DNA of 64,000 nt from Conexibacter woesei Iso977N (GTDB taxonomy: Bacteria; Actinomycetota; Thermoleophilia; Solirubrobacterales; Solirubrobacteraceae), in assembly GCF_000424625.1 (NCBI RefSeq), contig NZ_AUKG01000001.1:434001-498000 (forward strand), read 5' to 3'. The notes under the pieces were generated by a model. It worked only from the letters and a program-made list of their open reading frames with translations, made no database searches and was not told the DNA's origin. Position 1 is the first letter of the stretch, and every line of letters starts with the position of its first letter. Both the position numbers and the translations under genes were made by a program. Positions 9,626-35,149 of this stretch are shown one piece after another.

Positions 9626-10711
9626 TCAACGTAGCCGAAGCTCGTCGTAGAGCGCGACGTGCTCACGCGCGATCGCGTCCCAGGCGTAGGTCGTGCGCGC
9701 GGCCGCGCTCGCCTTGGCCGCCATCGCGGCGCGGGCCTGCGGATCGGCGATCAGCCGCGCCAGCTCGGCGTGGAGTGCCTCGGCGTCGCCGGGTGCGACG
9801 AGCGCGGCGGCGCCGGTCGCCGCGACCTCCGGGAAGCCGCCGACGGCGGAGAGCACGAGCGGGCGACCGAGCCCGAGCGCGGCGTAGAGGACGCCGGACT
9901 GGTCGATCTCCCGGTAGGGCAGCGCGACGACGTCGGCGCGCTTGAGCACGCCCGCCAGCTCGGCGTCGCTGACGAAGCGCGGGACGAGCCGGACACCCGG
10001 CGGCAGCTGCGCCGGCAGCGGCATCCGCGGCATGCCGACGATCCACAGCTCGGCGTCGAGGTCGTGCCAGGCGCGGAGGAGGACGTCGATCCCCTTGTAC
10101 GGGCGCAGCAGGCCGGTGAGCGCGACGACCGGCTTGTCGGTGTCGGGCAGCTCCGGGGGCAGCACGGCTTGCAGGTTCGCCAGGTGCGTGAACGCCCCGT
10201 GCGGGATGACCCGGACGCGCGCGCGGTCGATCCCCAGCTCGTCGGTGAGCCGCCGCGCACCGTGCTCGGAGTGCACGACGACACGATCGACGCGTTCATA
10301 GAGGCGTCGCTGCGCCCGCAGCTGCCCGGCACGCGGCTCGCGCGGGAGGACGTCATGGGCGGTCAAGACGGTCGGCACGTTCCTCGGGAGCAGGTGCACA
10401 TCGACCGGCTGCACCGTCAACCACTGGAAGTGCACGACATCCGCGCGCCTCGCGGCCACCCGCGCATACCCCACCATCTCCGGCCCATGCGCGGCGAGCT
10501 TCGCCACCAACCGCACCCTCGACCCCGGCGCCCCCACCACCCGCCGGTAGAACCGCTCCTCGATCCGGACGCCGGGCGCCTCCGGCACCTCGCCATACGC
10601 GAACCGCGACGTCACCAACGTCACCTCCACCCCCGCCGCCACCAGCGCAGCACTCAGCGCCCGGTCATACGGCGGGGTGAACGCACTCGGATCGACGACA
10701 TCGACGCGCAC
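9626..10711 (-). CDS. Glycosyltransferase family 4
   Basis: GT-B retaining glycosyltransferase of about 361 aa, cytoplasmic face. N-terminus VDVVDPSAFTPPYDRALSAAL opens the acceptor domain; the C-terminal donor domain shows VVALTGLLRPYKGIDVLLRAW, then ADVVALPYREIDQSGVLYAALGLGRPLVLS with the E-x7-E type region. First gene of the leftward polysaccharide operon. GTG 10711 gives the conserved N-terminus; GTG 10723 is possible. Divergent from a 99-aa gene with only 36 bp between starts. The sugar is unknown; the context is exopolysaccharide or capsule synthesis. Confidence 0.85.
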   Translation of the reverse strand: MRVDVVDPSAFTPPYDRALSAALVAAGVEVTLVTSRFAYGEVPEAPGVRIEERFYRRVVGAPGSRVRLVAKLAAHGPEMVGYARVAARRADVVHFQWLTVQPVDVHLLPRNVPTVLTAHDVLPREPRAGQLRAQRRLYERVDRVVVHSEHGARRLTDELGIDRARVRVIPHGAFTHLANLQAVLPPELPDTDKPVVALTGLLRPYKGIDVLLRAWHDLDAELWIVGMPRMPLPAQLPPGVRLVPRFVSDAELAGVLKRADVVALPYREIDQSGVLYAALGLGRPLVLSAVGGFPEVAATGAAALVAPGDAEALHAELARLIADPQARAAMAAKASAAARTTYAWDAIAREHVALYDELRLR

Positions 10712-10721
10712 AGCGCGCGCC

Positions 10722-10740
10722 ACGCTACTCGGTGTAGAAC
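10722..10740. promoter_or_regulatory. Back-to-back -10 elements of divergent genes
   Basis: Rightward TAGAAC (10735-10740) ends 7 nt before GTG 10748. Leftward TAGCGT (10727 to 10722) ends 10 nt before GTG 10711. The two promoters sit inside 36 bp, so RNA polymerase should not occupy both at once. Confidence 0.5.
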
Positions 10741-10747
10741 ACCAGCC

Positions 10748-11047
10748 GTGGACGTCGAGTTCATCAAGCTGGAGGGCCTCGTCACCATGGACGGGGACGA
10801 AGCGTCCGTGCAGTTCCGCCTGCACTACCTGCGCCCCGACGGCCTGTCGATCCTCAACGGCGGCCAGATGGGCTGGGAGCCCGGCTACGTCCCGCGGCCG
10901 GACGCGCTCGACCTCGTCGTCGCGACGTTCCTCTCCGACGCCAAGCTCGACCTGGCCAAGGCCGACGAGTGGCTGGACTCAGACGAGCCGCGCGACGGCC
11001 TCGTGCTCGTCTACGACGACGAAGCCCGCCGGCGGCTGAGTCCCTAG
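10748..11047 (+). CDS. Small acidic protein of unknown function
   Basis: 99 aa from GTG 10748, which follows a -10 hexamer by 7 nt; longer frames reading through this region are not used. No recognised domain. The sequence is acidic and looks like a compact alpha/beta protein: two beta-like stretches (VDVEFIKLEGLVTMDG, ASVQFRLHYLRPDG), a WEPGY turn, a hydrophobic helix (ALDLVVATFLSD) and a charged C-terminal helix. No signal peptide or membrane segment, so cytoplasmic. Divergent from the polysaccharide GT4 gene and convergent with the MFS exporter gene, with which it shares a CTAG at the stop codons. Codon use matches neighbours, so I consider it real. Confidence 0.7.
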   Translation: MDVEFIKLEGLVTMDGDEASVQFRLHYLRPDGLSILNGGQMGWEPGYVPRPDALDLVVATFLSDAKLDLAKADEWLDSDEPRDGLVLVYDDEARRRLSP

Positions 11048-11054
11048 GCCGCCG
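11030..11054. terminator. Bidirectional terminator hairpin
   Basis: CGGCGGC (11030-11036) pairs with GCCGCCG (11048-11054) across an 11-nt loop that holds the CTAG shared by both convergent stop codons. No U-tract. Confidence 0.45.
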
Positions 11055-12489
11055 CGGCGGCCAGCTCCTGCTCGTCGCGCGCTCGCATCGGCAGGCGGAA
11101 GATGAGCAGGAACGCGCCGGCCAGTGGGGCCAGGCAGGCCCAGGCGGTGATCTGGAGGGCCTCGGGCGGCAGGTGGTGCCTGAAGGCCGAGAAGAAGATC
11201 GTCCCCAGCACCGCGACGCCGAGCGAGGTCGAGAGCTGCTGGGTCGCCTCGAGCACGCCGGAGGCAGAGCCGACCTCGTCCATGTTGACGCTGCCGAGCA
11301 CGAAGCCGAACAGCTGGGCGAAGCTCGTGCCCGCCCCCGCGCCGACGAGCAGGAGCCCGGGCACGAGGTCCCAGGTCCCGGCGCTGTCGGCGCCGGTGAG
11401 GACCAGCGCGATGACGACGTTGCCGATGGCGATCAGCACGATCCCGATGTGCAGCAGGTGGCGGCCGAGGCGCTCGACCAGCGCGAAGGAGATCGTCATG
11501 CCGATCACGATCCCGATGACCATCGGCGTCAGCGTCAGGCCCGCGTGCAGCGGCGACCAGCCCTCGCCGAGCTGCCCGTAGAGCGAGACGCAGAGCAACA
11601 ACCCTGAGAACGCGCCGAAGAAGAACAGCACGACGGCGATCCCGCTGAGGTAGTCGCGGTTGCGCAGCAGCGAGGGCTCGATCAGCGCGTTCTCCTCGTG
11701 GCTGCGCTCATGGCGCATGAAGGCGTACAACAACCCGAGGCCGGCGGCGATCATCGCGAACGTCCACAGCGGCCAGCCGCTCTCCTGGCCCTGGATCAGC
11801 GGGTAGATGATGGCCAGCACCGCGAGGCCGACGAGGCCCACGCCGCCGAGGTCGAGCTTCAGCTGCGGGCGATGGGGGCTGTCGGGCAGCGACGGGATCG
11901 CGGCCGCCAGCGCGGCGATGCCGATCGGGACGTTGATCAGGAACACCAGGCGCCAGCCGACGTCCAGCCAGTTGGCGTCGATCAGCGCACCGGCGACGAT
12001 CGGGGCCAGCAGCAGCGGCACGCCGGTCGCCGGGCCGAGGAAGCCCATGGCCCTGTCGAACTCGGACTGGTTGGGGAAGACCTGCTTCAGGAAGCCGAAG
12101 CCCTGCGGGATCATCAGCGCGCCGAACGCGCCCTGGAGCGCGCGGCAGGCGATCAGGACCGGCATCGACGGCGCCGCGGCGCAGGCGGCCGAGAACAGCG
12201 TGAAGCCGGCGGAACCGATCAGGAAGACGCGGCGGCGGCCGAAGATGTCGCCCAGCCGGGCGCCCGCGATCAGCAGGACGGCGAACGCGAGCGTGTAGCC
12301 GGCGGCGATCCACTGCAGCGCCGAGGCGGAGCCGCCGAGGTCCTGGCGGACCGACGGGCCGGCGATGTTGGCGATCGTGGCGTCCATCGCGTCCATCACG
12401 TTGGCGGTCATCACGACGGCGAGCACGACCCAGCGCAGGCGGAAGGGCTGGTCGTCGGTGGTTGGGGAGGGAGAGGAGGAGAGGGTCAT
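11044..12489 (-). CDS. MFS drug exporter, DHA2 (14-TM) type
   Basis: Inner-membrane drug:H+ antiporter-like protein of 481 aa; length and hydrophobic pattern fit the 14-helix DHA2 group (EmrB/QacA). Seen: helix 1 with VVMTANVMDAMDATIANIAGPS (motif D1 region), motif A GARLGDIFGRRRVF, motif B CRALQGAFGALMIP, and motif C GFLGPATGVPLLLAPIVAGAL. ATG 12489 is chosen; a TTG start further upstream would fall inside the first operator. Divergent from a TetR gene, with two related operators between them, one on each promoter. The pair is a standard inducible efflux module: TetR represses exporter and itself until a ligand binds. Substrate not predictable. Confidence 0.9.
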   Translation of the reverse strand: MTLSSSPSPTTDDQPFRLRWVVLAVVMTANVMDAMDATIANIAGPSVRQDLGGSASALQWIAAGYTLAFAVLLIAGARLGDIFGRRRVFLIGSAGFTLFSAACAAAPSMPVLIACRALQGAFGALMIPQGFGFLKQVFPNQSEFDRAMGFLGPATGVPLLLAPIVAGALIDANWLDVGWRLVFLINVPIGIAALAAAIPSLPDSPHRPQLKLDLGGVGLVGLAVLAIIYPLIQGQESGWPLWTFAMIAAGLGLLYAFMRHERSHEENALIEPSLLRNRDYLSGIAVVLFFFGAFSGLLLCVSLYGQLGEGWSPLHAGLTLTPMVIGIVIGMTISFALVERLGRHLLHIGIVLIAIGNVVIALVLTGADSAGTWDLVPGLLLVGAGAGTSFAQLFGFVLGSVNMDEVGSASGVLEATQQLSTSLGVAVLGTIFFSAFRHHLPPEALQITAWACLAPLAGAFLLIFRLPMRARDEQELAAAAA

Positions 12490-15194: not shown

Positions 15195-15554
15195 ATGCGG
15201 GTGGGCATTGATCTGGTGAAGGTCGCGAGTGTTGCTGAGGCCGTGGAGGAGCATGGGCAGCGGTATCTGGATCGGGTCTACACCGCGCAGGAGCAGGCCG
15301 ATTGCCGGGGTGAGGCGTTGAAGCTCGCGGCGCGGTTCGCTGCCAAGGAGGCGGTGATGAAGGTCCTGGAGGTGAAGCGCGACGAGGCGGTCGCTTGGAC
15401 CGACATCGAGGTCATTCGGCAGACCGAGGGCGCTCCGAGGGTCGCGCTGCACGGCACCGCGGCGGAAGCCGCCAGGAGCGGCGGAATCTCCGACCTGGCG
15501 CTCTCCTTCACCCATGAGGACGAGTACGCGGCCGCTGTCGTCGTGGGGACATAG
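15195..15554 (+). CDS. acpS: Holo-[acyl-carrier-protein] synthase
   Basis: 119-aa AcpS-type 4'-phosphopantetheinyl transferase: transfers phosphopantetheine from CoA to a carrier-protein serine. Signature N-terminus MRVGIDLVKV with metal-binding Asp6, and RFAAKEAVMKVL with Glu52; C-terminal LSFTHEDEYAAAVVV is the usual AcpS end. Length is standard. It is the first gene of the rightward cluster; the next gene, 50 bp on, is a carrier protein, so this enzyme is well placed to load it. It may also serve fatty acid synthesis, since I see no other acpS in the window. A leaderless -10 precedes the ATG. Confidence 0.92.
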   Translation: MRVGIDLVKVASVAEAVEEHGQRYLDRVYTAQEQADCRGEALKLAARFAAKEAVMKVLEVKRDEAVAWTDIEVIRQTEGAPRVALHGTAAEAARSGGISDLALSFTHEDEYAAAVVVGT

Positions 15555-15577
15555 GCAGGCGGCCTTGCATCCACCGG

Positions 15578-15605
15578 TCAAGATCTCCACCGAGAGCACC
15601 GATAA
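15578..15605 (+). promoter_or_regulatory. Sigma-28-like promoter of carrier-protein operon
   Basis: TCAA (15578-15581), 16-nt spacer, ACCGATAA (15598-15605): the same layout as the flagellin promoter. Transcription should start near 15612, 1-2 nt before GTG 15614, as at the other copies of this motif that lie 7-9 nt from a start codon. Inference from sequence only. Confidence 0.5.
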
Positions 15606-15865
15606 TGACGGACGTGTCTTTTCCCGAAGTCCGTGAGATCGTCAAGGAGCACGGCCGCCTCGCGGCCGACGTGGAGACGCTCGCCGATGGCGACTCCCTC
15701 TACGAGGCGGGCATGACCTCGCATGCGAGCGTCAACGTGATGCTCGCGCTCGAGGACGCCTTCGACGTCGAGTTCCCCGACGAGATGCTGAAGCGCTCCG
15801 TCTTCGAGTCGGTCGCGTCGATCGCCGCCGCCCTGCAGCAGCTCGACGCGCCGCTCGTGGCATGA
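15605..15865 (+). CDS. Acyl-carrier-like protein for aminoacyl groups
   Basis: 86-aa stand-alone carrier protein. The phosphopantetheine serine is Ser39 in EAGMTSHASVNVMLALEDAF; canonical ACPs have DSL here, this one has TSH, which marks the special carrier proteins served by amino acid:carrier-protein ligases rather than fatty acid ACP. The protein is acidic and helical, with FPDEMLKRSVFESVASIAAAL as helices III-IV. If transcribed from the sigma-28-like promoter, translation would begin at GTG 15614 instead of ATG 15605. The stop overlaps the next start (ATGA). Expected to be pantetheinylated by AcpS and aminoacylated by the ligase three genes along. Confidence 0.88.
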   Translation: MTDVSFPEVREIVKEHGRLAADVETLADGDSLYEAGMTSHASVNVMLALEDAFDVEFPDEMLKRSVFESVASIAAALQQLDAPLVA

Positions 15866-17025
15866 CCGTCGACACGGACCGCGACGCCGCCTTCCTGGCC
15901 GGCATCGCCCAGATCGCCGACGAGATCGCGGCCGCCAACGCCGACGACGTCGACCGCAACGCCCGCTTCCCGCAGGAGACCTTCGCCGCGCTGCGCGAGC
16001 AGCGCGCGCTCTCCGCGCTCGTCCCCGCCGAGTACGGCGGCGCCGGCGTCTCCTTCGACGCCGTCGCCCAGGCCTGCTTCGAGCTCGGCCGCCGCTGCGG
16101 CGCCTCGGCGATGGTGTACGCCATGCACCAGATCCAGGTCGCGACGATCGTGCGCCACCTGGACGGCTCGCCGTGGTTCGAGGACTACCTGCGCGACCTC
16201 GTCGTCTCGCAGCGCCTGATCGCCTCGGTCACCTCCGAGGTCGGCACCGGCGGCGACATGAGCCGCTCGGTCGCGGCGCTCACGCCCGGCGACGGCGGCA
16301 TGGCGTCCTTCGAGAAGCAGGCCCCCACCGTCTCCTACGGCGCCTACGCCGACGACCTCCTCGTCACGCTGCGCGCCCACCCGGACGCCGACGCCCAGGT
16401 GCTCGTGCTCGCCGCCAAGGACCAGACGACGCTCGAGCCCACCGGCACGTGGGACCCGCTCGGCATGCGCGGCACGTGCTCGCCCGGCTACGTCGTCCGC
16501 GCGACCGTCCCCACCGAGCAGGTGCTCGGCCAGCCCTTCCCGGCGATCTCGACCGAGTCGATGGTCCCGATCAGCCACCTGCTGTGGTCGCACATCTGGC
16601 TCGGGATCGCCACCGACGCCTTCGACCGCGCCCGCGCCTTCGTCCGCGCCGCCGCCAAGCGCGCGCCCGGCCAACCGGTCCCGGCCGCGGTCAAGCTCAG
16701 CCACGTCATGACGCAGCTGTCGCTGTTGCGCGCCGAGGTCCACTCGTCGCTCGACATGTGGAACGGCGCCGCCGACGACCGCGAGAAGCTCTCCACGATG
16801 GCCTTCGCGTTGCGCATGAACAACCTGAAGCTCGCCGCCTCCGAGCAGGCGCCGGTCGTCTGTCAGCAGGCGATGGGCGTGTGCGGGATCGTCGGCTTCA
16901 AGAACGACACCCCGTTCAGCATCGGGCGCCACCTGCGCGACTCGATGTCGGCGTCGCTGATGGTCGCCAACGAGCGCATCCACCAGACGAACGCGCAGCT
17001 CCTGCTGATCGCCAAGGAGGTCTAG
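15862..17025 (+). CDS. Acyl-CoA dehydrogenase-like flavoprotein
   Basis: 387-aa FAD-dependent acyl-CoA dehydrogenase family protein: N-terminal helical domain (ARFPQETFAALREQRALSALVPAEYGGAGVS), middle beta domain (LIASVTSEVGTGGDMSRS; WDPLGMRGTCSPGYVV), and C-terminal helical domain (QAMGVCGIVGFKNDTPFSIGRHLRDSMSASLMVANERI). ATGA overlap with the carrier-protein gene implies a shared substrate. By analogy with prolyl-carrier dehydrogenases of pyrrole biosynthesis, it may oxidise the aminoacyl thioester on the carrier protein; this is inference. The usual catalytic Glu before the C-terminal R-D pair is not obvious, so the chemistry could differ from beta-oxidation. Confidence 0.82.
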   Translation: MTVDTDRDAAFLAGIAQIADEIAAANADDVDRNARFPQETFAALREQRALSALVPAEYGGAGVSFDAVAQACFELGRRCGASAMVYAMHQIQVATIVRHLDGSPWFEDYLRDLVVSQRLIASVTSEVGTGGDMSRSVAALTPGDGGMASFEKQAPTVSYGAYADDLLVTLRAHPDADAQVLVLAAKDQTTLEPTGTWDPLGMRGTCSPGYVVRATVPTEQVLGQPFPAISTESMVPISHLLWSHIWLGIATDAFDRARAFVRAAAKRAPGQPVPAAVKLSHVMTQLSLLRAEVHSSLDMWNGAADDREKLSTMAFALRMNNLKLAASEQAPVVCQQAMGVCGIVGFKNDTPFSIGRHLRDSMSASLMVANERIHQTNAQLLLIAKEV

Positions 17026-17031
17026 GCGCAC

Positions 17032-17976
17032 ATGGCGGCGTACCGCGAGGCGTCTGAGTCCCAGGCGCAGTTGTTGGAGGCCTTGGTCGAGGCCGGGCAC
17101 CTGATCCCGTCCGGCGTCCCCGGCGTGTACGGGCGCGGGTCGGACTACGAGGCCGTCCGGCTGGCCTTCGACGCCTACGTGACGCGGGCGGCGCTCGCCG
17201 CCGGTGAGACTCCGGAAGTGCTCCGCTTCCCCCCGGTCCTGCCGCGCAGGCAGATCGAGGACCTCGGCTACCTGGAGAACTTCCCGCACCTCGCGGGCTC
17301 CGTGTTCGCCTTCGAGGGCAGCGAGGGCCAGGCCCGCGCGATGGCCGAGGTGGCCGGGCAGCACGGCGACTGGTCCGAGCACCAGCACCCGTCCGACCTC
17401 TGCCTGACGCCGGCCGTCTGCTACCCGGTCTACCCCGCGGTCGCGCGGCGCGGCACGCTGCCGGCCGGCGGCGTGACGATCGACCCGGGCGCGTCCTACG
17501 CGTTCCGCCACGAGCCGTCCGGCGACCCCGCGCGCCTGCAGATGTTCCACATGCGCGAGCTGGTCCGGATCGCCGAGCCCGAGACCGTGCAGACGTGGCG
17601 TGACAGCTGGCGCGACCGCGCGCTGGCGTTGTTGGTGGACCTGGGTCTGGACGCGCGCTTCGACGTCGCCAACGACCCGTTCTTCGGCCGCGCCGGCCGG
17701 ATGATGGCCGCCTCACAGCGCGACCAGGCGCTGAAGTTCGAGATCCTGGTGGACATCACCGATCCGGAGCCGACGGCGATCGCGTCCTTCAACTACCACC
17801 AGGACCACTTCTCCGGCCTGTACGGGATCGAGACCGCCGACGGCGGGACCGCGCACACCGCGTGCCTCGGCTTCGGCCACGAGCGGATCGTCCTGGCGCT
17901 GCTGAAGACCCACGGCCTCGACGTCGCGGCCTGGCCGGGTGAGGTTCGCTCGCTGCTCTGGGACTCCGTAGGGTGA
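17032..17976 (+). CDS. Amino acid:[carrier protein] ligase (SerRS-like)
   Basis: 314 aa. Homologue of the catalytic core of atypical (methanogen-type) seryl-tRNA synthetase without the tRNA-binding domain; characterised relatives (e.g. Bradyrhizobium Bll0957) adenylate glycine or alanine and load it on a carrier protein. Seen: class II motif 2 FRHEPSGDPARLQMFHMRE with Arg159 and Glu161; motif 3 LGFGHERIVLALL with Arg285; predicted zinc ligands Cys130, Glu176, Cys278, the trio known from this family. No tRNA-binding arm and the length argue against a tRNA synthetase. Starts 6 bp after the dehydrogenase; GTGA overlap with the next gene. Identification is strong; the exact amino acid is not readable. 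Confidence 0.9.
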   Translation: MAAYREASESQAQLLEALVEAGHLIPSGVPGVYGRGSDYEAVRLAFDAYVTRAALAAGETPEVLRFPPVLPRRQIEDLGYLENFPHLAGSVFAFEGSEGQARAMAEVAGQHGDWSEHQHPSDLCLTPAVCYPVYPAVARRGTLPAGGVTIDPGASYAFRHEPSGDPARLQMFHMRELVRIAEPETVQTWRDSWRDRALALLVDLGLDARFDVANDPFFGRAGRMMAASQRDQALKFEILVDITDPEPTAIASFNYHQDHFSGLYGIETADGGTAHTACLGFGHERIVLALLKTHGLDVAAWPGEVRSLLWDSVG

Positions 17977-18911
17977 GCGCCGTGGACACGGGTGCCGAGG
18001 TCTACGTCCCGCACGCCGTCCACCGGCCGGGCCGGACCTACGTCGAGACCAACTGCTACACCGACGTCCTGATCGAGCTGGTCCACGCGCGCGGCTACGA
18101 GCCGCTGGCGATGTTGGGGATCAACGCGCGGATGGACTTCGAGGGCGACCAGTGGACGTTCTTCAAGCCGGCCCCGGGCGACCTCGAGCTCCTGTACGGC
18201 ATCGACATCCACGAGATGCAGCCCTACCGGGCGATCCCGGACCAGATCGCCGAGCAGCTGGCCGCGGGGCGGTCGATGATCGTCGAGCTGGACGCGTGGT
18301 GGCTGCCGGACACGGCGGCGACGTCGTACCGGTCCGAGCACGTCAAGACGTCGGTGGCGGCGGACGCGATCGACCGCGAGGCGGGGTGGCTGCGCTACTT
18401 CCACAACGCGGGCCGGTACGAGCTCTCGGGCGAGGACTACGCGGGCGTGTTCGCGAGCGCCGTCGCGCACCTGCCGCCGTACACGGAGCTGGTGCGCTTC
18501 GACGCGGGCCCGGCACTGCGGGGCGACGAGCTGCTCGACGCCGCGCGCGCGTGCCTGGCCGGGCACCTGCGCAAGCGGCCGGTGACCAACCCGTTCACGC
18601 GCTTCGGCGCGGCGCTGGCGGTGTCGCTCCCGGACCTGCTGGCGGGCGAGCCGCAGCGCTACCACGAGTACGCGTTCGCGACGGTCCGGATGGTCGGGAG
18701 CGCCTTCGAGCTGCTCGCCGCGCACGTGCGCTGGCTGCTCGGCCCGGACGGCGAGGAGATCGCGTCTGCGATGGATGAGATCGTGAGCGGCTCGATGATG
18801 TTGTCGCTGAAGCTCGCACGCCGGAAGGTCTTCGATCCCGCGCCGGTCGTCGGGAACCTCGCCGCGGCGTGGGAGCGCGCCGTCGGCGGGCTGGATGCCG
18901 CGCTGGCCTGA
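17973..18911 (+). CDS. DUF1839 protein, possible aminoacyl transferase
   Basis: 312 aa, cytoplasmic, uncharacterised. Conserved blocks: YVETNCYTDVLIELVHARGYEP (Cys28), DFEGDQWTFFKP (55-66), LELLYGIDIHEM, VELDAWWLPDT, YRSEHVKTS (His123), LRYFHNAGRY (His144). The TNC motif followed by an Asp-rich strand and a His recalls the BtrH N-terminal fold, in which a Cys enzyme moves an aminoacyl group from carrier protein to an aminoglycoside; I suggest, but cannot prove, a similar transfer here. GTG start overlaps the ligase stop (GTGA), and the 3' end overlaps the glycosidase start by 17 bp, so its expression is tied to both. Confidence 0.78.
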   Translation: MSAVDTGAEVYVPHAVHRPGRTYVETNCYTDVLIELVHARGYEPLAMLGINARMDFEGDQWTFFKPAPGDLELLYGIDIHEMQPYRAIPDQIAEQLAAGRSMIVELDAWWLPDTAATSYRSEHVKTSVAADAIDREAGWLRYFHNAGRYELSGEDYAGVFASAVAHLPPYTELVRFDAGPALRGDELLDAARACLAGHLRKRPVTNPFTRFGAALAVSLPDLLAGEPQRYHEYAFATVRMVGSAFELLAAHVRWLLGPDGEEIASAMDEIVSGSMMLSLKLARRKVFDPAPVVGNLAAAWERAVGGLDAALA

Positions 18912-21153
18912 GCATGGCGGGCTGACGGCCCGGCGGCTGGAGGGGTTCGCGCACGTCGAGGGCGGCGTGCCGAGCGACGACGCGGCGGCGACGTTCGTGC
19001 TGTCGTTCGACGCCGAGGCCGCGGCGCCGGGCGAGACGGTGGAGTTGGTCTTCGACGGCGTCGCCACCGTGTGGGAGGCGACGCTGAACGACGAGCTCGT
19101 CGCGGCGGGGACGTCGATGTTCGCTTCGCAGCGCGTGGACGTCGGCGGGTTGCTGCGTGACGGCGGGAACGTCCTGACGATCCGCTGCCGCGCCCTTGTT
19201 GATGTCCTTGCCGAGCAGCCGAAGCGGCCGCGGCAGCGGTGGCGGACCAAGGTGGTGGAGAACGCGGGCGCGCTGCGGTTCGTCCGGACGTCGGTGCTCG
19301 GCCGCGCGCCGGGGTTCGCCCCGGGGCCGCCGGTCGTGGGGCCGTGGCGGCCGGTGTGGCTCGTGCGGCGGCGGGGCGTTTTGCAAGTTGATGACATCGT
19401 GTTGCGACCGCGGGTCGAGGGCGACGACGGCGTGCTGGCCGTCTCGGCGCCGGGCGTCGAGGGCGAGGTGGTCGTCGGGAACATCGCGGCGCCGCTCGTC
19501 GACGGCCGCGCGGAGGTCCGGATCCCGGACGTCGCGCTCTGGTGGCCGCACACCCACGGGACGCCCGCGTTGCACGACGTGGTCCTGCGGGTCGACGGCG
19601 CCGAGGTCGGCGTCGGGCGCACGGGGTTCCGGACGCTCGGCGACGACGCGGCGCGGTGCGTGGTCAATGGCATCGACATGTTCGCGCGAGGCGTCGTCTG
19701 GACGCCGGTCCCGGAGGGCGAGGCGCGCGCGACGCTGGAGCTGCTGCGCGACGCGGGGATCAACATGGTGCGGATCCCGGGGATCGGGGTCTACGAGGAC
19801 GTCGCGTTCCACGACCTGTGCGACGAGTTGGGGTTGTTGGTCTGGCAGGACTTCATGTTCGCCAACATGGACTACCCGGTCGAGGATCCCGCGTTCGCCG
19901 AGCAGGTTGTCCGTGAAGCGCGCGAGGTGCTGGCCCGGATCGGCGGGCGGCCGTCGCTGGCGGTGCTGTGCGGGGGTTCCGAGATCGAGCAGCAGGCGGC
20001 GATGTTCGGCGTCGACCCGGCGCTCGCGCGCGGCGCGTTGTTGGAGGAGTTGCTCCCGGGTTGCGCGCGGGAGGCGGGCGTGGGCGACGTCCCTTACGTG
20101 ACCAACGCGCCGAGTGGCGGCGCGATGCCGTTCCACCCGCGCGAGGGCGTCGCGAACTGGTTCGGCGTCGGCGGCTACCGGCGGCCGCTGAGCGACGTCC
20201 GGACGGCGGGCGTCCGGTTCGCCTCGGAGTGCCTGGCGTTCGCCAACGTGCCGGGCGACGTCGAGGACCATGACGTGGGCGTGATGCGCGACGTCGGGTC
20301 CGACTGGGACTTCGCCGACGTGCGCGACCACTACCTGCGGGAGCTGTGGGGCGTCGAGCGCTCGCACCCGCGCTACTGGGAGCTGGCGCGGCAGATGACC
20401 GGCGAGTTGATGGCCTACGTCTTCGGCGACTGGCGGCGCGCGGGGTCGGGCTGCGGCGGCGGGCTGATCCTGTGGTCGCGCGACCTGCGCCCGGGGTCCG
20501 GGTGGGGTGTTCTTGATGTGGATGGCCGGGCGAAGGTCGCGCTGCGCCGCCTGGCGCCGGTGCTGCAGCCGCGGGCGGTGTGGTTCACCGACGAGGGGCT
20601 CAACGGGCTCGACGTGCACGTGGCGAACGACGCGGCCGAGCCGCTGCACGCGGTGGTGGACGTCGTGGTCCTGGCGGGCGGCGCGCAGGTCCTGGCGGAG
20701 GGGTCGGAGGAGATCGTCGTCGCGCCGCACGGCGTGGAGCGGCTGAGCGTCGAGGGCGTGCTGAGGCGGTTCCTCGACGTCTCGTACGCCTACCGGTTCG
20801 GGCCGGCGCCGCACGACACGGTCGTGGCGACGCTGCGCAGCGGCGACGCGGTCCTCGCGCAGGCGGTGCACTTCCCGGTCGGGCCGCCGCTGGTCGCGGA
20901 GGCGTTCGGGCTGGAGGCGGAGTGGCGCGACGGCGTCGTCGCGCTGCGCGCCGAGCGCGTCGCGTGGGGCGTCCGGATCGACGTCCCGGGGTGGGTCCCG
21001 GAGGACGACGCGTTCACGCTGGTCCCGGGGTCGCCGCGGATCGTGCGGATGCGACCTGTCGACGGTGACAGGTCGGTGTTCCGGGGCGGCTGCGTGAGGG
21101 CCCTGAACCTCATCGGTGAGCCACCGGTCGGGGCGCCGGATCTGGCACCCTGA
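18895..21153 (+). CDS. Glycoside hydrolase family 2-like protein
   Basis: 752 aa with beta-mannosidase/GH2 architecture: N-terminal sugar-binding beta domain (about 1-130), immunoglobulin-like domain (to 260), TIM barrel (VVNGIDMFARGVVWTP; GINMVRIPGIGVYED; LVWQDFMFANMDYP), then C-terminal beta domains. Candidate acid/base Glu in LCGGSEIEQQ (GH2 usually has NE) and nucleophile Glu in RFASECLAFAN. No signal peptide, so it works in the cytoplasm, which is unusual for a degradative mannosidase and suggests trimming or transfer on an intracellular glycoside. Start ATG 18895 overlaps the DUF1839 stop by 17 bp. The GT2 gene follows after 6 bp. Activity unproven. Confidence 0.8.
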   Translation: MPRWPEHGGLTARRLEGFAHVEGGVPSDDAAATFVLSFDAEAAAPGETVELVFDGVATVWEATLNDELVAAGTSMFASQRVDVGGLLRDGGNVLTIRCRALVDVLAEQPKRPRQRWRTKVVENAGALRFVRTSVLGRAPGFAPGPPVVGPWRPVWLVRRRGVLQVDDIVLRPRVEGDDGVLAVSAPGVEGEVVVGNIAAPLVDGRAEVRIPDVALWWPHTHGTPALHDVVLRVDGAEVGVGRTGFRTLGDDAARCVVNGIDMFARGVVWTPVPEGEARATLELLRDAGINMVRIPGIGVYEDVAFHDLCDELGLLVWQDFMFANMDYPVEDPAFAEQVVREAREVLARIGGRPSLAVLCGGSEIEQQAAMFGVDPALARGALLEELLPGCAREAGVGDVPYVTNAPSGGAMPFHPREGVANWFGVGGYRRPLSDVRTAGVRFASECLAFANVPGDVEDHDVGVMRDVGSDWDFADVRDHYLRELWGVERSHPRYWELARQMTGELMAYVFGDWRRAGSGCGGGLILWSRDLRPGSGWGVLDVDGRAKVALRRLAPVLQPRAVWFTDEGLNGLDVHVANDAAEPLHAVVDVVVLAGGAQVLAEGSEEIVVAPHGVERLSVEGVLRRFLDVSYAYRFGPAPHDTVVATLRSGDAVLAQAVHFPVGPPLVAEAFGLEAEWRDGVVALRAERVAWGVRIDVPGWVPEDDAFTLVPGSPRIVRMRPVDGDRSVFRGGCVRALNLIGEPPVGAPDLAP

Positions 21154-21159
21154 CGCGCC

Positions 21160-22098
21160 GTGGCTGTCGAGGTCTCCTATTGCGTCGTCAACACGCAGCA
21201 GCGCGAGCTGCTCGTGCGTTGCCTGGATGCGATCGCGGCGGAGCGGGCGGCGCTGCCGTTCGAGGCCGAGGTGCTGGTGCTCGACAACGCGTCGACCGAC
21301 GGGAGCGCGGGCGCTGCGAGGCGGCATCCGACGGTGACCGAGGTCGTGGCGCTCGATCAGCGGCGCGGGAAGGGCGAGAACGACTCGCACCTGCTGCAAC
21401 GGTCGCGCGGGCGGTTCTGCTTGTTGTTGAACGAGGACAGCGAGCTGAAGCCGGGGGCGACGCTGAAGCTGCACGCGGCGCTGACCGGTGCGGAGCGCGC
21501 GGGTGCCGCGGGCGCGAAGCTGCTGCGCCCGGACGGGCGGGTGCAGCCGTCGGCGTGGCGGTTCCCGACGCCGGCGACCGCCGTGGTTGGCGCGTTGTTC
21601 CTGCACAAGCGGCTGACGGTGCAGTCGCGCGGCCGGAGGACGCGGCGGGTCGACTGGGCGCAGTCGGCGGCGCTGCTGGTCCGGCGGGACGCGGCGAGGG
21701 AGATCGGGTGGTTCGACCCGCAGTTCTTCGTGTACTCGGACGAGGTCGACTTCTGCAAGCGGCTCGCCGACGCCGGGTGGTCGACGCTGTGGGTGCCGGG
21801 CGCCGAGGCGTTCCACCACGAGCAGTTGTCGACCGGCGCGGTTCCGGAGCGGCGGATCGTCGAGCTGTCGCGCAACCGCGATCGGTACATGCGCAAGCAC
21901 CACTCCGCCGGCGCGGCGTTCGTGGTGCGGGTGCTGACGGCGTGGACGTACGCGGTCCGGGCGCTGGTCGCGACGGTCGCGCCCGGCCACGACCCGAAGC
22001 GCTACTGGAAGCACGTGACCGCGACGCTGCGCCCATCGCGCGGCGAGGGCCTGCGCGAGGCCGCGCACGAGTTCAACCGCGGCGGCCCGACGCTGTAA
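21160..22098 (+). CDS. Glycosyltransferase family 2, WbbL-like
   Basis: 312-aa GT-A glycosyltransferase related to rhamnosyltransferases. Seen: VSYCVVNTQQRELLVRCLDAI, LVLDNASTDGSAGAAR, LLLNEDSELKPGAT (DxD position as NEDSE), SAALLVRRDAAREIGWFDPQFFVYSDEVDFCKRL (acceptor/catalytic loop), HHEQLSTG. C-terminal amphipathic helices may dock on the membrane. Last gene of the rightward operon, 6 bp after the glycosidase, and followed by a hairpin. It supplies the glycan arm of the aminoacyl-carrier cluster; donor and acceptor unknown. GTG start gives the correct N-terminus. Confidence 0.87.
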   Translation: MAVEVSYCVVNTQQRELLVRCLDAIAAERAALPFEAEVLVLDNASTDGSAGAARRHPTVTEVVALDQRRGKGENDSHLLQRSRGRFCLLLNEDSELKPGATLKLHAALTGAERAGAAGAKLLRPDGRVQPSAWRFPTPATAVVGALFLHKRLTVQSRGRRTRRVDWAQSAALLVRRDAAREIGWFDPQFFVYSDEVDFCKRLADAGWSTLWVPGAEAFHHEQLSTGAVPERRIVELSRNRDRYMRKHHSAGAAFVVRVLTAWTYAVRALVATVAPGHDPKRYWKHVTATLRPSRGEGLREAAHEFNRGGPTL

Positions 22099-23298: not shown

Positions 23299-24744
23299 TC
23301 AGGCCGGCTGGTGGCGGAGCTCTTGGAGGCGGCGGAGCTCGGGGATGGTGATGACGCGGGTGAGGACGAGCGCGGGGGGTGCGAGGCAGAGGAGGGCGAA
23401 GCGGGTTGCGAGGCCGAGGGCTCCGTGGGTCGGCAGGAGCAGCTCGCCCGCCAGGCCGATCGTCGTGAGGGTGATGACCGCCGATGCGAGGCGGGGCCAC
23501 TCGAAGGGGACCGAGAAGAGGTCGCGGGTCAACATGTACAACACGAAGACGATCACGACGTAGGCGCCACAGAGGGCGATGCCCGCGCCGGCGATCCCGA
23601 GGGGGTCCACGAGCGTCACCAACAGGATGACGTTCACCACGAGGCCGGCCAGCGTCGCGGGGAAGTTGCGGCTGGTGACCTTCGCCCGGCCCGCGACGGT
23701 GATCAACACCAGCACCAACCCGTAGAGCGCCCAGCCCAGCGCCACCCAGGGGAGCGCGGCGGAGGCCCCGTAGTACGACGGGTCGTCGGCCAGCGCGCGG
23801 ACCGCCCACCGGCCCACCAGCAGCACGCCGCACACCACGACGCCCGTGACCGCGACGTAGAGCGTCGTCACGCGGGCGTAGAGGCGCGCCGCCTGCGCCT
23901 CGTCGGTCACGCTGTACGCCAACGGCGGCCACGCCGCCTGGAACCCGCGCACCGCGACGATCACGACCGTCGACAGCTTCGCCGCGAAGCCGTAGCGCCC
24001 GGCGGCGTCCGCGGAGTCGTGGTGCAGGATGTAGGTCCGGTCGACCACGTTGAGCGCGAAGGCCGCCGCGTCGGCGGGCACGGTCGGCCCGCCGAAGCGC
24101 AGCAGCGCCACCGTCCGCCGCGGGGGCCGGAACGAGACGCGGTCGCGCAGCAGGACCCAGAGGACGAGCAGGATCACGGTCGACGCGCCGTAGTTGCCCA
24201 GCACGTAGCCGCGGGCGCCCTTGTCGAGGATGACCACCAACAACACCGTCAGCCCGACGGTGAGCAAGATGTTCAACACAGCGCAGATGGCGTAGGTCTT
24301 GAGCCGCTCCTCGACGCGCAGCAGCGCGTTGGCCACCTCGAGGTTCGTGAACGCCCACAGCCCGAAGATCCCCGACGCCATCAGCGACGCGTCCTCGTGC
24401 GCGAGGATCAGTCGCGACAACGGCGCGGCGAACACCAACAGGATCAGCGCGACCACGGTGGACGCGTACAACGTCCACGACGTCACCGTCCGCGCCAGAT
24501 CGACGCGCCGCGCGTGGTCCTCGTCGTCGAACCAGAACCGGACGAACGCCTCGCCGATCCCGAACCGCAGCAGGATCGACGTGAAGATGATCGCCGTCAG
24601 CAGGTTCTCGGCGTAGCCGTAGTCCGCGGTCGAGAGGTACCTCGTGTACAGCGGAAGCGTGACGATCGCCAGCAGCGCCGAGAGGATGCTCGGCGCCTGG
24701 TAGACGAAGGTGCTCGCGAGGAGACGCCGGAACAACGAGGCCAT
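23299..24744 (-). CDS. Lipid-linked oligosaccharide flippase (Wzx-like)
   Basis: 481 aa, 12-14 hydrophobic segments, polysaccharide biosynthesis/MOP superfamily. Starts with FRRLLASTFVYQAPSILSALLAIVTLPLYTRYLSTADYG, the typical first-helix pattern of Wzx and MurJ-like flippases, and has R/K at the helix ends. It should move undecaprenyl-linked repeat units across the inner membrane. ATG 24744 gives the conserved N-terminus; an upstream in-frame ATG adds a 20-residue tail that overlaps the divergent gene start and seems unused. TAGCGT lies 11 nt upstream. Shares the region with O-antigen ligase and several glycosyltransferases, a Wzx/Wzy-type set. Confidence 0.88.
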   Translation of the reverse strand: MASLFRRLLASTFVYQAPSILSALLAIVTLPLYTRYLSTADYGYAENLLTAIIFTSILLRFGIGEAFVRFWFDDEDHARRVDLARTVTSWTLYASTVVALILLVFAAPLSRLILAHEDASLMASGIFGLWAFTNLEVANALLRVEERLKTYAICAVLNILLTVGLTVLLVVILDKGARGYVLGNYGASTVILLVLWVLLRDRVSFRPPRRTVALLRFGGPTVPADAAAFALNVVDRTYILHHDSADAAGRYGFAAKLSTVVIVAVRGFQAAWPPLAYSVTDEAQAARLYARVTTLYVAVTGVVVCGVLLVGRWAVRALADDPSYYGASAALPWVALGWALYGLVLVLITVAGRAKVTSRNFPATLAGLVVNVILLVTLVDPLGIAGAGIALCGAYVVIVFVLYMLTRDLFSVPFEWPRLASAVITLTTIGLAGELLLPTHGALGLATRFALLCLAPPALVLTRVITIPELRRLQELRHQPA

Positions 24745-25861: not shown

Positions 25862-27266
25862 CGGGCGGGCAGGCGATGTAGGCGGTGAAGCCGCCGCGCA
25901 TGTCGCCGCGGAGGAACCCGTCCGGCGGCGCGTTGGTCTTCGGCGAGGCGCCGTCGGCGAAGCCGTAGCGGCGCAGGAGCTTCTCGCCGACGAGCAGCAG
26001 CGCGACGCCGTGGTCGCGCTGGACGGCCGAGCGGGAGCCGACCTGCTTCTGGGTCGCGTCGAGGATCCAGCGCGTGTCGGGCACCAGGCGGTAGTTCGGC
26101 AGCGTCACCGGGCCGCAGGCGCGCCCGGCCCGGACCGTCGGCGAGTGCAGGACGGCGGCGAGGTCGTCGTGCGTGGAGCGGATGAAGCGCAGCTCGGTCG
26201 CGAGCTTGCCGAACGCGTCGGCGCGGACGATCACGAACGCCAGGCCGGCGACGACGGCGACCGCCAGCAGCGCGCGGCTCCGAGTGACGATGTAGCCCGC
26301 GGGCAGGCAGAGCGCGACCGCCGGGACCGTGAGGTACCGCGGCAGGACCGAGAGGCCCGCGGCCGAGGTCGCCAGGAACGTGATCGACCCTGCGAGGAAC
26401 AGCGCGATCGGGACGTGCGCGGCGCGGAAGTCGCGCTGCCTGAACGACCACACGGTGCCCGCGATCGCCGCCAGCGCGACGGGCAGGCGCGCGGTGTCGG
26501 CGAGGAACGACACGAAGTCGCCGGGGACCTTGCTGAAGGACTGCGAGCGGTTGAGCTCGTCGGCGAGGTCGGAGGTCGAGTGCAGCGAGAACAGCGGGTC
26601 GCCGGTGACGATCGCGTCGACCAGGCACCACAGCAGCGGCGCGGCGACGACGAGCGGGACGAGCTTCCAGAGCGGCCTGCGGTCCGGCCAGCAGAGCCAG
26701 AGCCAGTAGGCGCCGCCGAGCAGCCACGCCTCGGGCCGGAGCAGGCCGGCGAGGATCAGCAGCGCCCAGACCGGGCCGGTGCCGGCGCGCGCGCCGGCGT
26801 CTCCCCCGCGCACGGTGCGCTCGGCCTCGAGCGCGCCGGCCCACAACACGAGCGCCAGGAACGGCTCGTCGACGTAGGCGCGCGCGGCGTAGAGCAACAG
26901 CGCGAACGACGAGCCCGCCAGGAACGCGGCCATCGCGCCCGCGCGGCGGTCCCAGATCGCGGTGCCCAGGCGGTACACGGCGTAGGTGAAGGCGACGTGG
27001 CAGAGGCAGGTGAAGAGCACCAACAACCGGTCGGCGCTCTCCCCCACCAGGCCGAACAGCGCGGTGATCACCAGGTACAGCGGGTGCTGCGTCGGCGCCT
27101 GGTAGGCCTGGAACGTCGGCAGGTGGCCGCGGACGATCTCGCGCCCCCAGTCCAGCGCGTAGTAGGCGTCGTAGTTGGGGTACGTGGGCACGAGCGCCCA
27201 GAAGAGCACCGCCGCCACGACCGCGGCGCCGACGACGTACAGCTCGATGCGCCGATCGCGCGTCAT
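25854..27266 (-). CDS. Polyprenyl-sugar glycosyltransferase (GT39/ArnT-like)
   Basis: 470 aa integral membrane protein with about 10-12 helices and an external C-terminal domain. N-terminal loop after the first helix: NYDAYYALDWGREIVRGHLPTFQAYQAPTQHPLYL, with the acidic pair expected of GT-C enzymes (ArnT/PMT family) that use polyprenyl-phosphate sugars outside the membrane. C-terminal soluble part about 110 residues with Cys residues (RACGPVTLP, YIACPPAR). ATG 27266 overlaps the stop of the O-antigen ligase gene (ATGA), so the two are coupled. It could add a branch sugar to the polymer or glycosylate an exported protein. Acceptor unknown. Confidence 0.82.
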   Translation of the reverse strand: MTRDRRIELYVVGAAVVAAVLFWALVPTYPNYDAYYALDWGREIVRGHLPTFQAYQAPTQHPLYLVITALFGLVGESADRLLVLFTCLCHVAFTYAVYRLGTAIWDRRAGAMAAFLAGSSFALLLYAARAYVDEPFLALVLWAGALEAERTVRGGDAGARAGTGPVWALLILAGLLRPEAWLLGGAYWLWLCWPDRRPLWKLVPLVVAAPLLWCLVDAIVTGDPLFSLHSTSDLADELNRSQSFSKVPGDFVSFLADTARLPVALAAIAGTVWSFRQRDFRAAHVPIALFLAGSITFLATSAAGLSVLPRYLTVPAVALCLPAGYIVTRSRALLAVAVVAGLAFVIVRADAFGKLATELRFIRSTHDDLAAVLHSPTVRAGRACGPVTLPNYRLVPDTRWILDATQKQVGSRSAVQRDHGVALLLVGEKLLRRYGFADGASPKTNAPPDGFLRGDMRGGFTAYIACPPAR

Positions 27267-28753
27267 GCGGTGGCGGGCACCGGCGGCGCCTCGGGCCGCC
27301 GCCGCCTCCGCGGCACCAGCGACAGCGCCAGGCCCGTGCCGAGCAGCGCCCACGTCAGCGGATCCTCGAGGAACGACGCGTAGCTCCACGTGTGCAGCAC
27401 CAGCGCGATGAACGCCGCGGCGATCGCCGCCCGGACGGGATCGCCGCGGACGCCGCGCAGCAGCGCCAGGAACGCCGCCACCAGCAGCCAGATGTACACC
27501 AACAAGCCCGGAAGGCCCTGCTCGGCGGCGACCGTGATCGGGATCGTGTGCGACGCGCTCACGGCCTTCTCGGCCGACGAGCCCCTCTCGGCGTGGCGGT
27601 AGGCCCGCGAGAACGCGCCCGACCCGTAGCCCTTCAGCGGCTTGTCGCCGAACAGGTTGATCCCGCCCTTGAGCAGGTCGTAACGGCCGGAGGTCGCCGT
27701 GTCGGCGCCCTTGGACGAGTTCAGGTCCAGCCGGATCGACGACGGCGCGGCGACGATGAAGATCGCGCCGACGACCAGCGCGGCAACCCCTACGCCTACG
27801 GCCCACCGCGGCGACCAGCGCGCGCCCGCCAGGACCAACAGCCCCAACAACAGCGCGGCGAACGACGACTGCGACAGCGTCAGGACGAGCCCCGCCATCA
27901 GCACCGCGAGCACGAGCGTGACCGTCCAGATGTCGCGCGGCCGCGACGCCCAGATCAGCACCGCGGCCAGCCCGATCATCACGATCGCCAGGAAGCGCCC
28001 GTAGATGTTGGGGTCGAAGAACAGCGAGTTGACGCGGAAGTACGACTCGAACTGGTTGGACGCGATGACCTTCGGGTTCAGGAACAGGTGCCGCGTCGCG
28101 TACTCCACGAACCCGATGCACGCGAAGGCCAGCGCCAACACGGACAACACGGTCAGCACCTGCACCATCAGCTTGCGCGACCACGTGATCCGGGCGAGCA
28201 GCGCGAACAGCAACGCGAACGGGACGTAGAAGAAGACCGCGTTCTCCAGCGCCTTGTCGAAGTCCTTGGAGTACCACGCCTGCAAGGCGTACAACACGAT
28301 CGTCCCGGCGAGCAACCACTCCAACATCGTCGCGGGCCGTTCGCGCTCGTCGCCGCGCTCGCCGGCGATCCGCGGGATCGCGTAGGCCAGCGCGCCCGCG
28401 CCGACGACGACGTACAGCGGCACCAGCAGGTTCGACGTCGAGCCGCCGGAGGAGATCGGGATCCGGAACGGGATCGCCGCCGCGGCGCAGAGCGGGAAGG
28501 CCGACGGCGTGCGGTCGAACCACACGGCCAGCGCGGCCAGCGCGGCAAGACCGAGCACAACGCCCACGACCGCCAGCGACGGGTGGTCGCGCAGCGGCCG
28601 CACCTGCTCGGTGTCCCAGATGTCGGAGATCAGCAGGATCGGCGCCAGCACGAGCGCGCCGAGCGTCGACCACGCGCGCAGGCGGGCGCGCGGCGCCACG
28701 ATGGCGCCGGCGGCGAACAGGGCGGCGAGGATCAGTGGGAGAGGAGCGTCCAC
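27263..28753 (-). CDS. O-antigen ligase/polymerase family protein
   Basis: 496 aa, about 12 membrane segments, Wzy_C/WaaL superfamily: polymerises or ligates lipid-linked glycans on the outer face of the membrane. Key loop near residue 380-420: GINLFGDKPLKGYGSGAFSRAYRH and SASHTIPITVAAEQGLPGLLVYIWLLV, the HxxxLxxxxExGxxG signature (here SHTIPITVAAEQGLPG). GTG 28753 overlaps the preceding gene's stop by 22 bp; start confirmed by first helix LPLILAALFAAGAIV. Coupled to the downstream GT-C gene by ATGA. In a Gram-positive organism it most likely acts as a polymerase or attaches glycan to the wall. Confidence 0.87.
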   Translation of the reverse strand: MDAPLPLILAALFAAGAIVAPRARLRAWSTLGALVLAPILLISDIWDTEQVRPLRDHPSLAVVGVVLGLAALAALAVWFDRTPSAFPLCAAAAIPFRIPISSGGSTSNLLVPLYVVVGAGALAYAIPRIAGERGDERERPATMLEWLLAGTIVLYALQAWYSKDFDKALENAVFFYVPFALLFALLARITWSRKLMVQVLTVLSVLALAFACIGFVEYATRHLFLNPKVIASNQFESYFRVNSLFFDPNIYGRFLAIVMIGLAAVLIWASRPRDIWTVTLVLAVLMAGLVLTLSQSSFAALLLGLLVLAGARWSPRWAVGVGVAALVVGAIFIVAAPSSIRLDLNSSKGADTATSGRYDLLKGGINLFGDKPLKGYGSGAFSRAYRHAERGSSAEKAVSASHTIPITVAAEQGLPGLLVYIWLLVAAFLALLRGVRGDPVRAAIAAAFIALVLHTWSYASFLEDPLTWALLGTGLALSLVPRRRRRPEAPPVPATA

Positions 28754-35136: not shown

Positions 35137-35143
35137 CCGGGGC

Positions 35144-35149
35144 ATTGTA
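35144..35149 (-). promoter_or_regulatory. Leaderless -10 element of CapD-like gene
   Basis: TACAAT on the minus strand, 7 nt before ATG 35136. This makes the upstream ATG 35145, which overlaps the hexamer, unlikely as start. Confidence 0.6.

What the first reader, a model, noticed from the sequence alone, without database searches (positions are those of the whole stretch)
15195..22098. Seven-gene aminoacyl-carrier-protein operon with a glycan arm
AcpS, a stand-alone carrier protein, an acyl-CoA-dehydrogenase-like flavoprotein, an amino acid:carrier-protein ligase, DUF1839, an intracellular GH2-like glycosidase and a GT2 lie on one strand with gaps or overlaps of -17 to 50 bp. Known: such ligases charge carrier proteins with Gly or Ala. 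The fate of that thioester is, as far as I know, not described. Inference: the amino acid is oxidised or kept on the carrier, then moved by DUF1839 to a sugar handled by the glycosidase and GT2.
Basis: partly seen in the sequence, partly recalled or inferred. Interest (0 to 1): 0.87.

Follow-up and report, generated by a model that had tools for sequence, protein, structure and literature searches.

The report
Carrier-protein amino-acid-to-sugar cassette
A widespread but untested set of bacterial genes probably loads an amino acid onto a carrier protein, oxidises it and attaches it to an amino sugar; this was predicted from gene order in 2010, and the fold match and active-site residues found here turn it into a specific bench-testable hypothesis.

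Summary
In detail: seven co-directional genes at 15195-22098, gaps -17 to +50 bp. ACP-ACAD-ligase-DUF1839-GH2 is a real conserved unit (34 other loci with DUF1839 in Actinobacteriota and alpha-/beta-proteobacteria; actinobacterial copies often add AcpS). The GT2 is not part of it (0 of 34 have an adjacent homologue). The usual extra gene is a two-domain alpha/beta hydrolase, which in this genome lies unlinked elsewhere. New support: the DUF1839 model matches CcbD (Z 20), which moves an aminoacyl group from a carrier protein via cysteine to an amino sugar; Cys28-(Thr/Ser)126-His144 is conserved. The GH2 keeps both catalytic Glu but carries SE instead of NE. The 'acyl-CoA dehydrogenase' lacks both usual Glu bases, so ordinary alpha,beta-desaturation is unlikely. 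Best reading: Gly/Ala is charged on the ACP, oxidised at or near nitrogen, passed by DUF1839 to an amino-sugar amine; the GH2 then acts on that substituted sugar. Amino acid, oxidation product and acceptor are untested.

The parts
15195..15554 (+). AcpS-type phosphopantetheinyl transferase (makes holo-ACP)
   Evidence: PF01648 1.1e-16, TIGR00556 6.6e-25; an AcpS homologue lies at or near the cassette in many actinobacterial loci and in none of the proteobacterial ones
15605..15865 (+). stand-alone carrier protein, attachment Ser39 (GMTSH)
   Evidence: PRK07081 110 bits; Ser39 in 37/37 relatives
15862..17025 (+). acyl-CoA-dehydrogenase-fold flavoprotein without either usual catalytic Glu (V368, L241)
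17032..17976 (+). amino acid:carrier-protein ligase (class II aaRS-like, no tRNA-binding domain)
   Evidence: PRK07080 403 bits; PDB Bll0957 (4h2w, 3mey) E 6e-81; C130/E176/C278 and R159/E161/R285 in 38/38
17973..18911 (+). DUF1839: predicted CcbD-like cysteine N-acyltransferase, triad C28-(T/S)126-H144
   Evidence: PF08893 4e-91; AF2 pLDDT 88.8; CcbD Z 20.2 over 284 of 312; C28 34/35, T/S126 37/37, H144 37/37; papain-like with swapped triad per PMC10318531
18895..21153 (+). cytosolic GH2 glycosidase, group II/beta-mannosidase-like, SE acid/base motif (S362-E363), nucleophile E445; N-terminus shorter than relatives
21160..22098 (+). GT2 glycosyltransferase: co-directional, 6 bp behind GH2, but not part of the conserved unit
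   Evidence: PF00535 3.6e-10; the only homologue among other loci is a distant 410-aa protein on the far side of L024

Best explanation
The conserved core (ACP, ACAD-like flavoprotein, aa:CP ligase, DUF1839, GH2; AcpS added in many Actinobacteria) makes an N-acyl amino sugar. AcpS makes holo-ACP and the ligase loads a small amino acid (Gly or Ala by analogy; inferred). The flavoprotein oxidises the carrier-bound aminoacyl group, not by the Glu-driven alpha,beta-desaturation of normal acyl-CoA dehydrogenases but at the C-N bond or by N-oxygenation (inferred). DUF1839 takes the acyl group onto Cys28 and passes it to the amine of an amino sugar, as CcbD does (inferred from fold, conserved residues and gene context). 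The cytosolic GH2, with a pocket altered near C2, then cleaves or transfers the resulting (N-acyl)amino-sugar beta-glycoside (weakest step). The GT2 of this genome is a local addition. Shown here: gene set, conservation, co-evolution, predicted fold, residue conservation. Inferred: every chemical step.
For: Conserved unit in 34 other loci with DUF1839 across Actinobacteriota and alpha-/beta-proteobacteria. In a sample of 396 Actinobacteriota genomes, all three with DUF1839 also have the ligase close by, while the ligase also occurs without DUF1839. In L055 DUF1839-GH2 form one pair and ACP-ACAD-LIG another, facing each other, so DUF1839 and GH2 belong together. Distances co-vary, r 0.84-0.93. 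DUF1839 model: CcbD Z 20.2, AziU3 18.6, CtaG 18.2; the next row is Z 8.2. C28 starts helix 28-39, T126 is on strand 125-134 and H144 ends strand 139-144, as expected for a papain-like triad. CcbD loads carrier-bound proline on Cys and gives it to the amine of a thiooctose (PMC12945683). GH2: SE in 29 of 31 readable sequences, and P/G/S/A/T where beta-mannosidases have Trp and glucosaminidases Glu, the kind of change linked to C2-modified or substituted sugars (PMC12243196). No signal-peptide-like N-termini in GH2 or DUF1839, against exported controls.
Against: No substrate or product is known. No amino-sugar biosynthesis gene travels with the cassette, and on proteobacterial plasmids the neighbours are mostly unrelated to glycans, so the acceptor must be a housekeeping compound and might not be a sugar. 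DUF1839 has (T/S)-His where CcbD has His-Glu, so the chemistry may differ. At least two Rhizobium plasmid copies lack an intact GH2. One cassette (L036) has Arg in place of the catalytic Cys.
Confidence: 0.5

Rival explanations
1. The cassette makes a small diffusible metabolite: DUF1839 joins the oxidised aminoacyl group to a non-sugar amine, and the GH2 removes a sugar from a glycosylated precursor or product.
For: Cassettes on rhizobial, Azospirillum and Burkholderiaceae plasmids sit in unrelated surroundings as self-contained units; the fold relatives CtaG and AziU3 come from natural-product pathways without a sugar amine as acceptor (pathway facts recalled).
Against: GH2 is in the core and co-evolves with DUF1839; many actinobacterial copies lie near glycosyltransferases and other glycan genes; CcbD, the top fold match, uses a sugar amine.
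Confidence: 0.2
2. The product is a decorated cell-surface polysaccharide (Gly/Ala-type amides on EPS or LPS), as proposed in PMC2922099. This is a sub-case of the best explanation that fixes the destination.
For: Window neighbours include a flippase (23299-24744), an O-antigen-ligase-family protein (27266-28753) and a nucleotide-sugar dehydratase-type protein (33106-35145); other loci have GT1/GT4, GT2, UDP-GlcNAc 2-epimerase and GH26-like neighbours; the hydrolase partner resembles exosortase/EPS-associated hydrolases 1 and 2.
Against: Most proteobacterial copies show no such neighbours; DUF1839 and GH2 are predicted cytosolic; flank enrichment was not tested against random genomic windows.
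Confidence: 0.3
3. DUF1839 is a thioesterase or hydrolase, so the system is an amino-acid oxidation route and the GH2 is incidental.
For: Papain-like folds are commonly hydrolytic; two ligase loci without DUF1839 carry the alpha/beta hydrolase instead (L057, L058), so release may be by hydrolysis there.
Against: Whole-length match only to carrier-protein-linked biosynthetic enzymes (Z 17-20 against 8.2 for the next row); GH2 stays beside DUF1839 even where the ligase module is detached (L055).
Confidence: 0.12

Closest known systems
Neighbourhood predicted in PMC2922099 (Biol Direct 2010, note added in proof; Atu2574 etc.)
   Same: Same gene set in words: SerRS-like ligase, ACP, redox enzyme, conserved uncharacterised protein, glycosidase; same proposal of amide ligation to an amino sugar after oxidation
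   Different: Prediction from gene context only; the main text gives no fold, residue or co-evolution analysis of these genes. That Atu2574 is DUF1839 is inferred here from position.
Lincosamide synthetase (CcbC/LmbC, carrier protein, CcbD/LmbD)
   Same: Carrier-bound amino acid passed via the Cys of a CcbD-fold enzyme to an amino-sugar amine; fold match Z 20
   Different: Uses an NRPS-type adenylation enzyme, not an aaRS-like ligase; no ACAD-like enzyme or GH2 in the condensation step; Cys-His-Glu against Cys-(Thr/Ser)-His; about 13% identity
Bradyrhizobium aa:CP ligases (Bll0957) with their carrier proteins
   Same: Ligase and ACP are family members; conserved motif-2/3 and proposed zinc residues
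   Different: Only charging is known; downstream fate listed as unknown (PMC9437257)
Dlt D-alanylation of teichoic acids
   Same: Amino acid loaded on a carrier protein and moved to a glycopolymer
   Different: DltA is an adenylation-domain enzyme, DltB a membrane acyltransferase, and an ester is formed outside the cell (recalled); no such genes are in this cassette
Butirosin BtrH acyltransferase
   Same: Papain-like ACP:aminoglycoside acyltransferase (PMC10318531)
   Different: Different Pfam family; no direct comparison made here

Membership tests
amino acid:carrier-protein ligase (PRK07080) | Score above the curated family cut-off and no tRNA-binding domain | tested here: met
   403 bits against 357; 314 aa against about 520 for methanogen-type SerRS
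amino acid:carrier-protein ligase (PRK07080) | Class II motif 2/3 residues and Cys-Glu-Cys zinc ligands (ligand identity recalled) | tested here: met
   R159/E161/R285 and C130/E176/C278 in 38/38
amino acid:carrier-protein ligase (PRK07080) | Aminoacylates the partner ACP with Gly or Ala | not testable with these tools
   needs biochemistry
CcbD/LmbD-type carrier-protein-dependent amide synthase | Same fold over the full length | tested here: met
   Z 20.2, rmsd 3.2, 284 of 312 residues, model pLDDT 88.8
CcbD/LmbD-type carrier-protein-dependent amide synthase | Catalytic Cys at the N-terminus of the first long helix | tested here: met
   C28 begins H28-39; C in 34 of 35 sequences that cover it
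CcbD/LmbD-type carrier-protein-dependent amide synthase | Cys-His-Glu triad | tested here: not met
   (T/S)126 and H144 conserved instead, the swapped order described in PMC10318531; hence 'works like', not 'is a member'
CcbD/LmbD-type carrier-protein-dependent amide synthase | Amide formation with an amino sugar | not testable with these tools
   needs biochemistry
Glycoside hydrolase family 2 | Two catalytic Glu (acid/base, nucleophile) | tested here: met
   E363 in 31/31 and E445 in 30/30 sequences with a residue there; L038, cut short near an IS, aligns poorly
GH2 beta-mannosidase subfamily (GH2_13) | NE motif and Trp near C2/C3 | tested here: not met
   SE in 29 of 31 (one TE, one misaligned); P/G/S/A/T at the aligned loop-2 position, never Trp, although beta-mannosidases are the best PDB matches
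GH2_14 (SE motif, Gly in loop 2) | SE with Gly at the His position | tested here: inconclusive
   SE met; loop-2 residue is Gly in 6 and Pro in 20 of 30; no GH2_14 sequence was available for comparison
acyl-CoA dehydrogenase (catalytic) | Glu base at the MCAD-376 or IVD-254 position (positions recalled) | tested here: not met
   V/I/L at 368 in 38/38; L/T/F/Y/V at 241 in 37/37; positions inferred from sequence alignment, and the C-terminus of the model is low confidence
Flavin monooxygenases of the ACAD fold (DszC, TdsC, MsuC, nitrososynthases) | Closer to these than to dehydrogenases | tested here: inconclusive
   Best PDB sequence matches of the middle region are DszC/TdsC, but whole-structure Z values are tied with dehydrogenases, 34-36

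The most novel reading that the evidence does not exclude
A cytosolic pathway, spread by horizontal transfer across Actinobacteriota and Proteobacteria, makes a new class of sugar amide in which a carrier-bound glycine or alanine is oxidised at nitrogen or the C-N bond by a Glu-less ACAD-fold enzyme, transferred by a swapped-triad CcbD-like enzyme, and released or relocated by a GH2 specialised for N-substituted amino sugars.
Probability: 0.2. Interest if true: 0.8.

Novelty: new member of a known kind. Interest (0 to 1): 0.57.

Why it matters
The role of aa:CP ligases has been open since their discovery in 2010 and was still listed as unknown in 2022. If DUF1839 is a CcbD-like amide synthase, the ligases feed a compact amino-sugar acylation pathway found in plant-associated and soil bacteria, and one in vitro reaction (ligase, ACP, DUF1839, amino-sugar panel) would test it. 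It would also give a natural set of stand-alone carrier-protein N-acyltransferases.

Tried and rejected
GT2 as a core gene: rejected, no adjacent homologue elsewhere. DUF1839 in viral contigs: none found. Sequence search of DUF1839 against PDB: no credible hit (the best, 8pjx, 9e-4, is a short local match to a protein named SAKe6FR). The original ligase paper (PMC2930448) is not held. ACAD subtype by structure comparison: undecided, Z tied. Flank enrichment for glycan genes was tallied but not tested against a control. Large gaps for L034, L035 and some others come from my gene caller choosing late starts; the PLSDB annotation gives tight spacing there.
Full report
WHAT IS THERE. Seven + strand ORFs run from 15195 to 22098 with gaps 50, -4, 6, -4, -17 and 6 bp, bounded by opposite-strand genes. 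Family searches confirm AcpS, a PRK07081-type carrier protein, an acyl-CoA-dehydrogenase-fold protein, an amino acid--[acyl-carrier-protein] ligase (403 bits), DUF1839 (4e-91), a GH2 and a GT2. The window lies in a 5.7-Mb genome with a single DUF1839; genomes of the same GTDB family include Patulibacter minatonensis.

CONSERVATION. DUF1839 is rare: beside the window's own genome, 2 of 198 genomes of the class and 2 of 395 of the phylum had a match. In that phylum sample all three genomes with DUF1839, the window's included, have the ligase close by, while strong ligase hits also occur without DUF1839. A scan of GTDB genomes gave 21 loci, from Solirubrobacterales, Frankiales and other actinobacterial MAGs (one labelled Burkholderiales, one Chlamydiae, possibly mis-binned). 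Plasmid records gave hits to the ligase (87 records), DUF1839 (59) and this kind of GH2 (49 over 80% of its length) in Rhizobium, Azospirillum, Mycetohabitans, Caballeronia, Burkholderia, Cupriavidus, Shinella and Methylobacterium. The order ACP-ACAD-LIG-DUF1839-GH2 is nearly fixed. Pairwise distances of the four larger proteins correlate at 0.84-0.93, no permutation of 200 reaching the value, as expected if the set is inherited and transferred together; shared ancestry of the hosts also contributes.

WHAT BELONGS AND WHAT DOES NOT. The GT2 has no adjacent homologue at any other locus. The common extra gene is a protein of about 600 aa whose halves resemble exosortase-A-associated hydrolases 2 and 1; the window lacks it, but the genome has a near-full-length copy at C1:1642712-1644472 (39%) and a partial relative at C1:1235865. 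Control loci show modules: L055 has DUF1839-GH2 facing ACP-ACAD-LIG; L058 has ACP-ACAD-LIG-hydrolase; L057 has LIG-ACP-AcpS-hydrolase; L059 has the ligase alone. So charging, oxidation and transfer are separable, and DUF1839 goes with GH2.

DUF1839. An AlphaFold2 model (pLDDT 88.8) matches CcbD (Z 20.2, 284 residues), AziU3 (18.6) and CtaG (18.2); the next match is Z 8.2 (Foldseek agrees). CcbD moves carrier-bound proline onto its Cys and then to the amine of a thiooctose (PMC12945683). The family was called papain-like with a Cys-(Thr/Ser)-His triad in PMC10318531. Here Cys28 is kept in 34 of 35, Thr/Ser126 in 37 of 37 and His144 in 37 of 37, and the model puts them at a helix start, on a strand and at a strand end. 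CcbD has Cys-His-Glu, so DUF1839 is CcbD-like, not filed as a CcbD family member.

GH2. Profile hits in PDB are beta-mannosidases (3e-63). Both catalytic Glu are kept, but the Asn before the acid/base is Ser (SE 29, TE 1, one misaligned), and the loop-2 residue is small (P 20, G 6, S 2, A 1, T 1). PMC12243196 links Ser at this place to C2 amination in glucosaminidases (SD) and to a wider pocket for substituted sugars in GH2_14 (SE + Gly). There is no signal-peptide-like N-terminus. The window copy is N-terminally shortened; whether it is active is unknown.

ACAD-LIKE PROTEIN. The usual Glu of MCAD (376) is V/I/L in 38 of 38, and the isovaleryl-type Glu position is L/T/F/Y/V in 37 of 37 (canonical positions recalled, alignment anchored on the RD motif). 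The middle region is closest in PDB to DszC/TdsC monooxygenases, but whole-structure Z values are tied between oxygenases and dehydrogenases, including ColB1, titled as a carrier-tethered cysteine dehydrogenase. Since glycine has no beta-carbon, a base-free C-N oxidation or N-oxygenation is the more natural guess (inference).

LITERATURE AND NOVELTY. PMC2922099 (2010) described this neighbourhood in a note added in proof and predicted monooxygenation of the aminoacyl group and amide ligation to a cell-surface amino sugar. PMC9437257 (2022) says the biological role of the ligases is unknown. A full-text search for DUF1839 found one paper. The papers searched are open-licence only, so a functional study in a subscription journal may have been missed.

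Noticed in passing
L005:11942-12631: In Patulibacter minatonensis AcpS and the carrier protein are read in one uninterrupted frame (229 aa), a possible PPTase-ACP fusion (an internal ATG start is also possible).
   Followed up: partly
L036:9955-10875: Cupriavidus campinensis DUF1839 has Arg for the catalytic Cys and other changed motif residues: degenerate or divergent.
   Followed up: partly
L038:9968-11032: Rhizobium leguminosarum CC283b: the GH2 reading frame is cut short next to an IS5 transposase (10619-11599).
   Followed up: partly
L057:8612-12194: Ligase, ACP, AcpS and the alpha/beta hydrolase without ACAD, DUF1839 or GH2: an alternative system using the same charging module.
   Followed up: partly
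L056:4144-5736: A second ligase-ACP-AcpS set about 8 kb from the full cassette in the same genome.
   Followed up: no
L012:15367-19031; also L018:15353-16453: GH26-like proteins lie downstream of the cassette in several MAGs, three in tandem in L012.
   Followed up: no
L020:10911-11756; L004:5277-6113; L006:2381-3256; L019:6474-7232: Related methyltransferases recur next to the cassette, and once inside it between DUF1839 and GH2.
   Followed up: no
window 31214-31963: ComA-family (phosphosulfolactate synthase) gene next to a histidine phosphatase (30639-31214) beside a polysaccharide cluster.
   Followed up: no
L063:8650-10479: The window genome's unlinked two-domain hydrolase lies near GT4 and GHL15-like genes.
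   Followed up: partly
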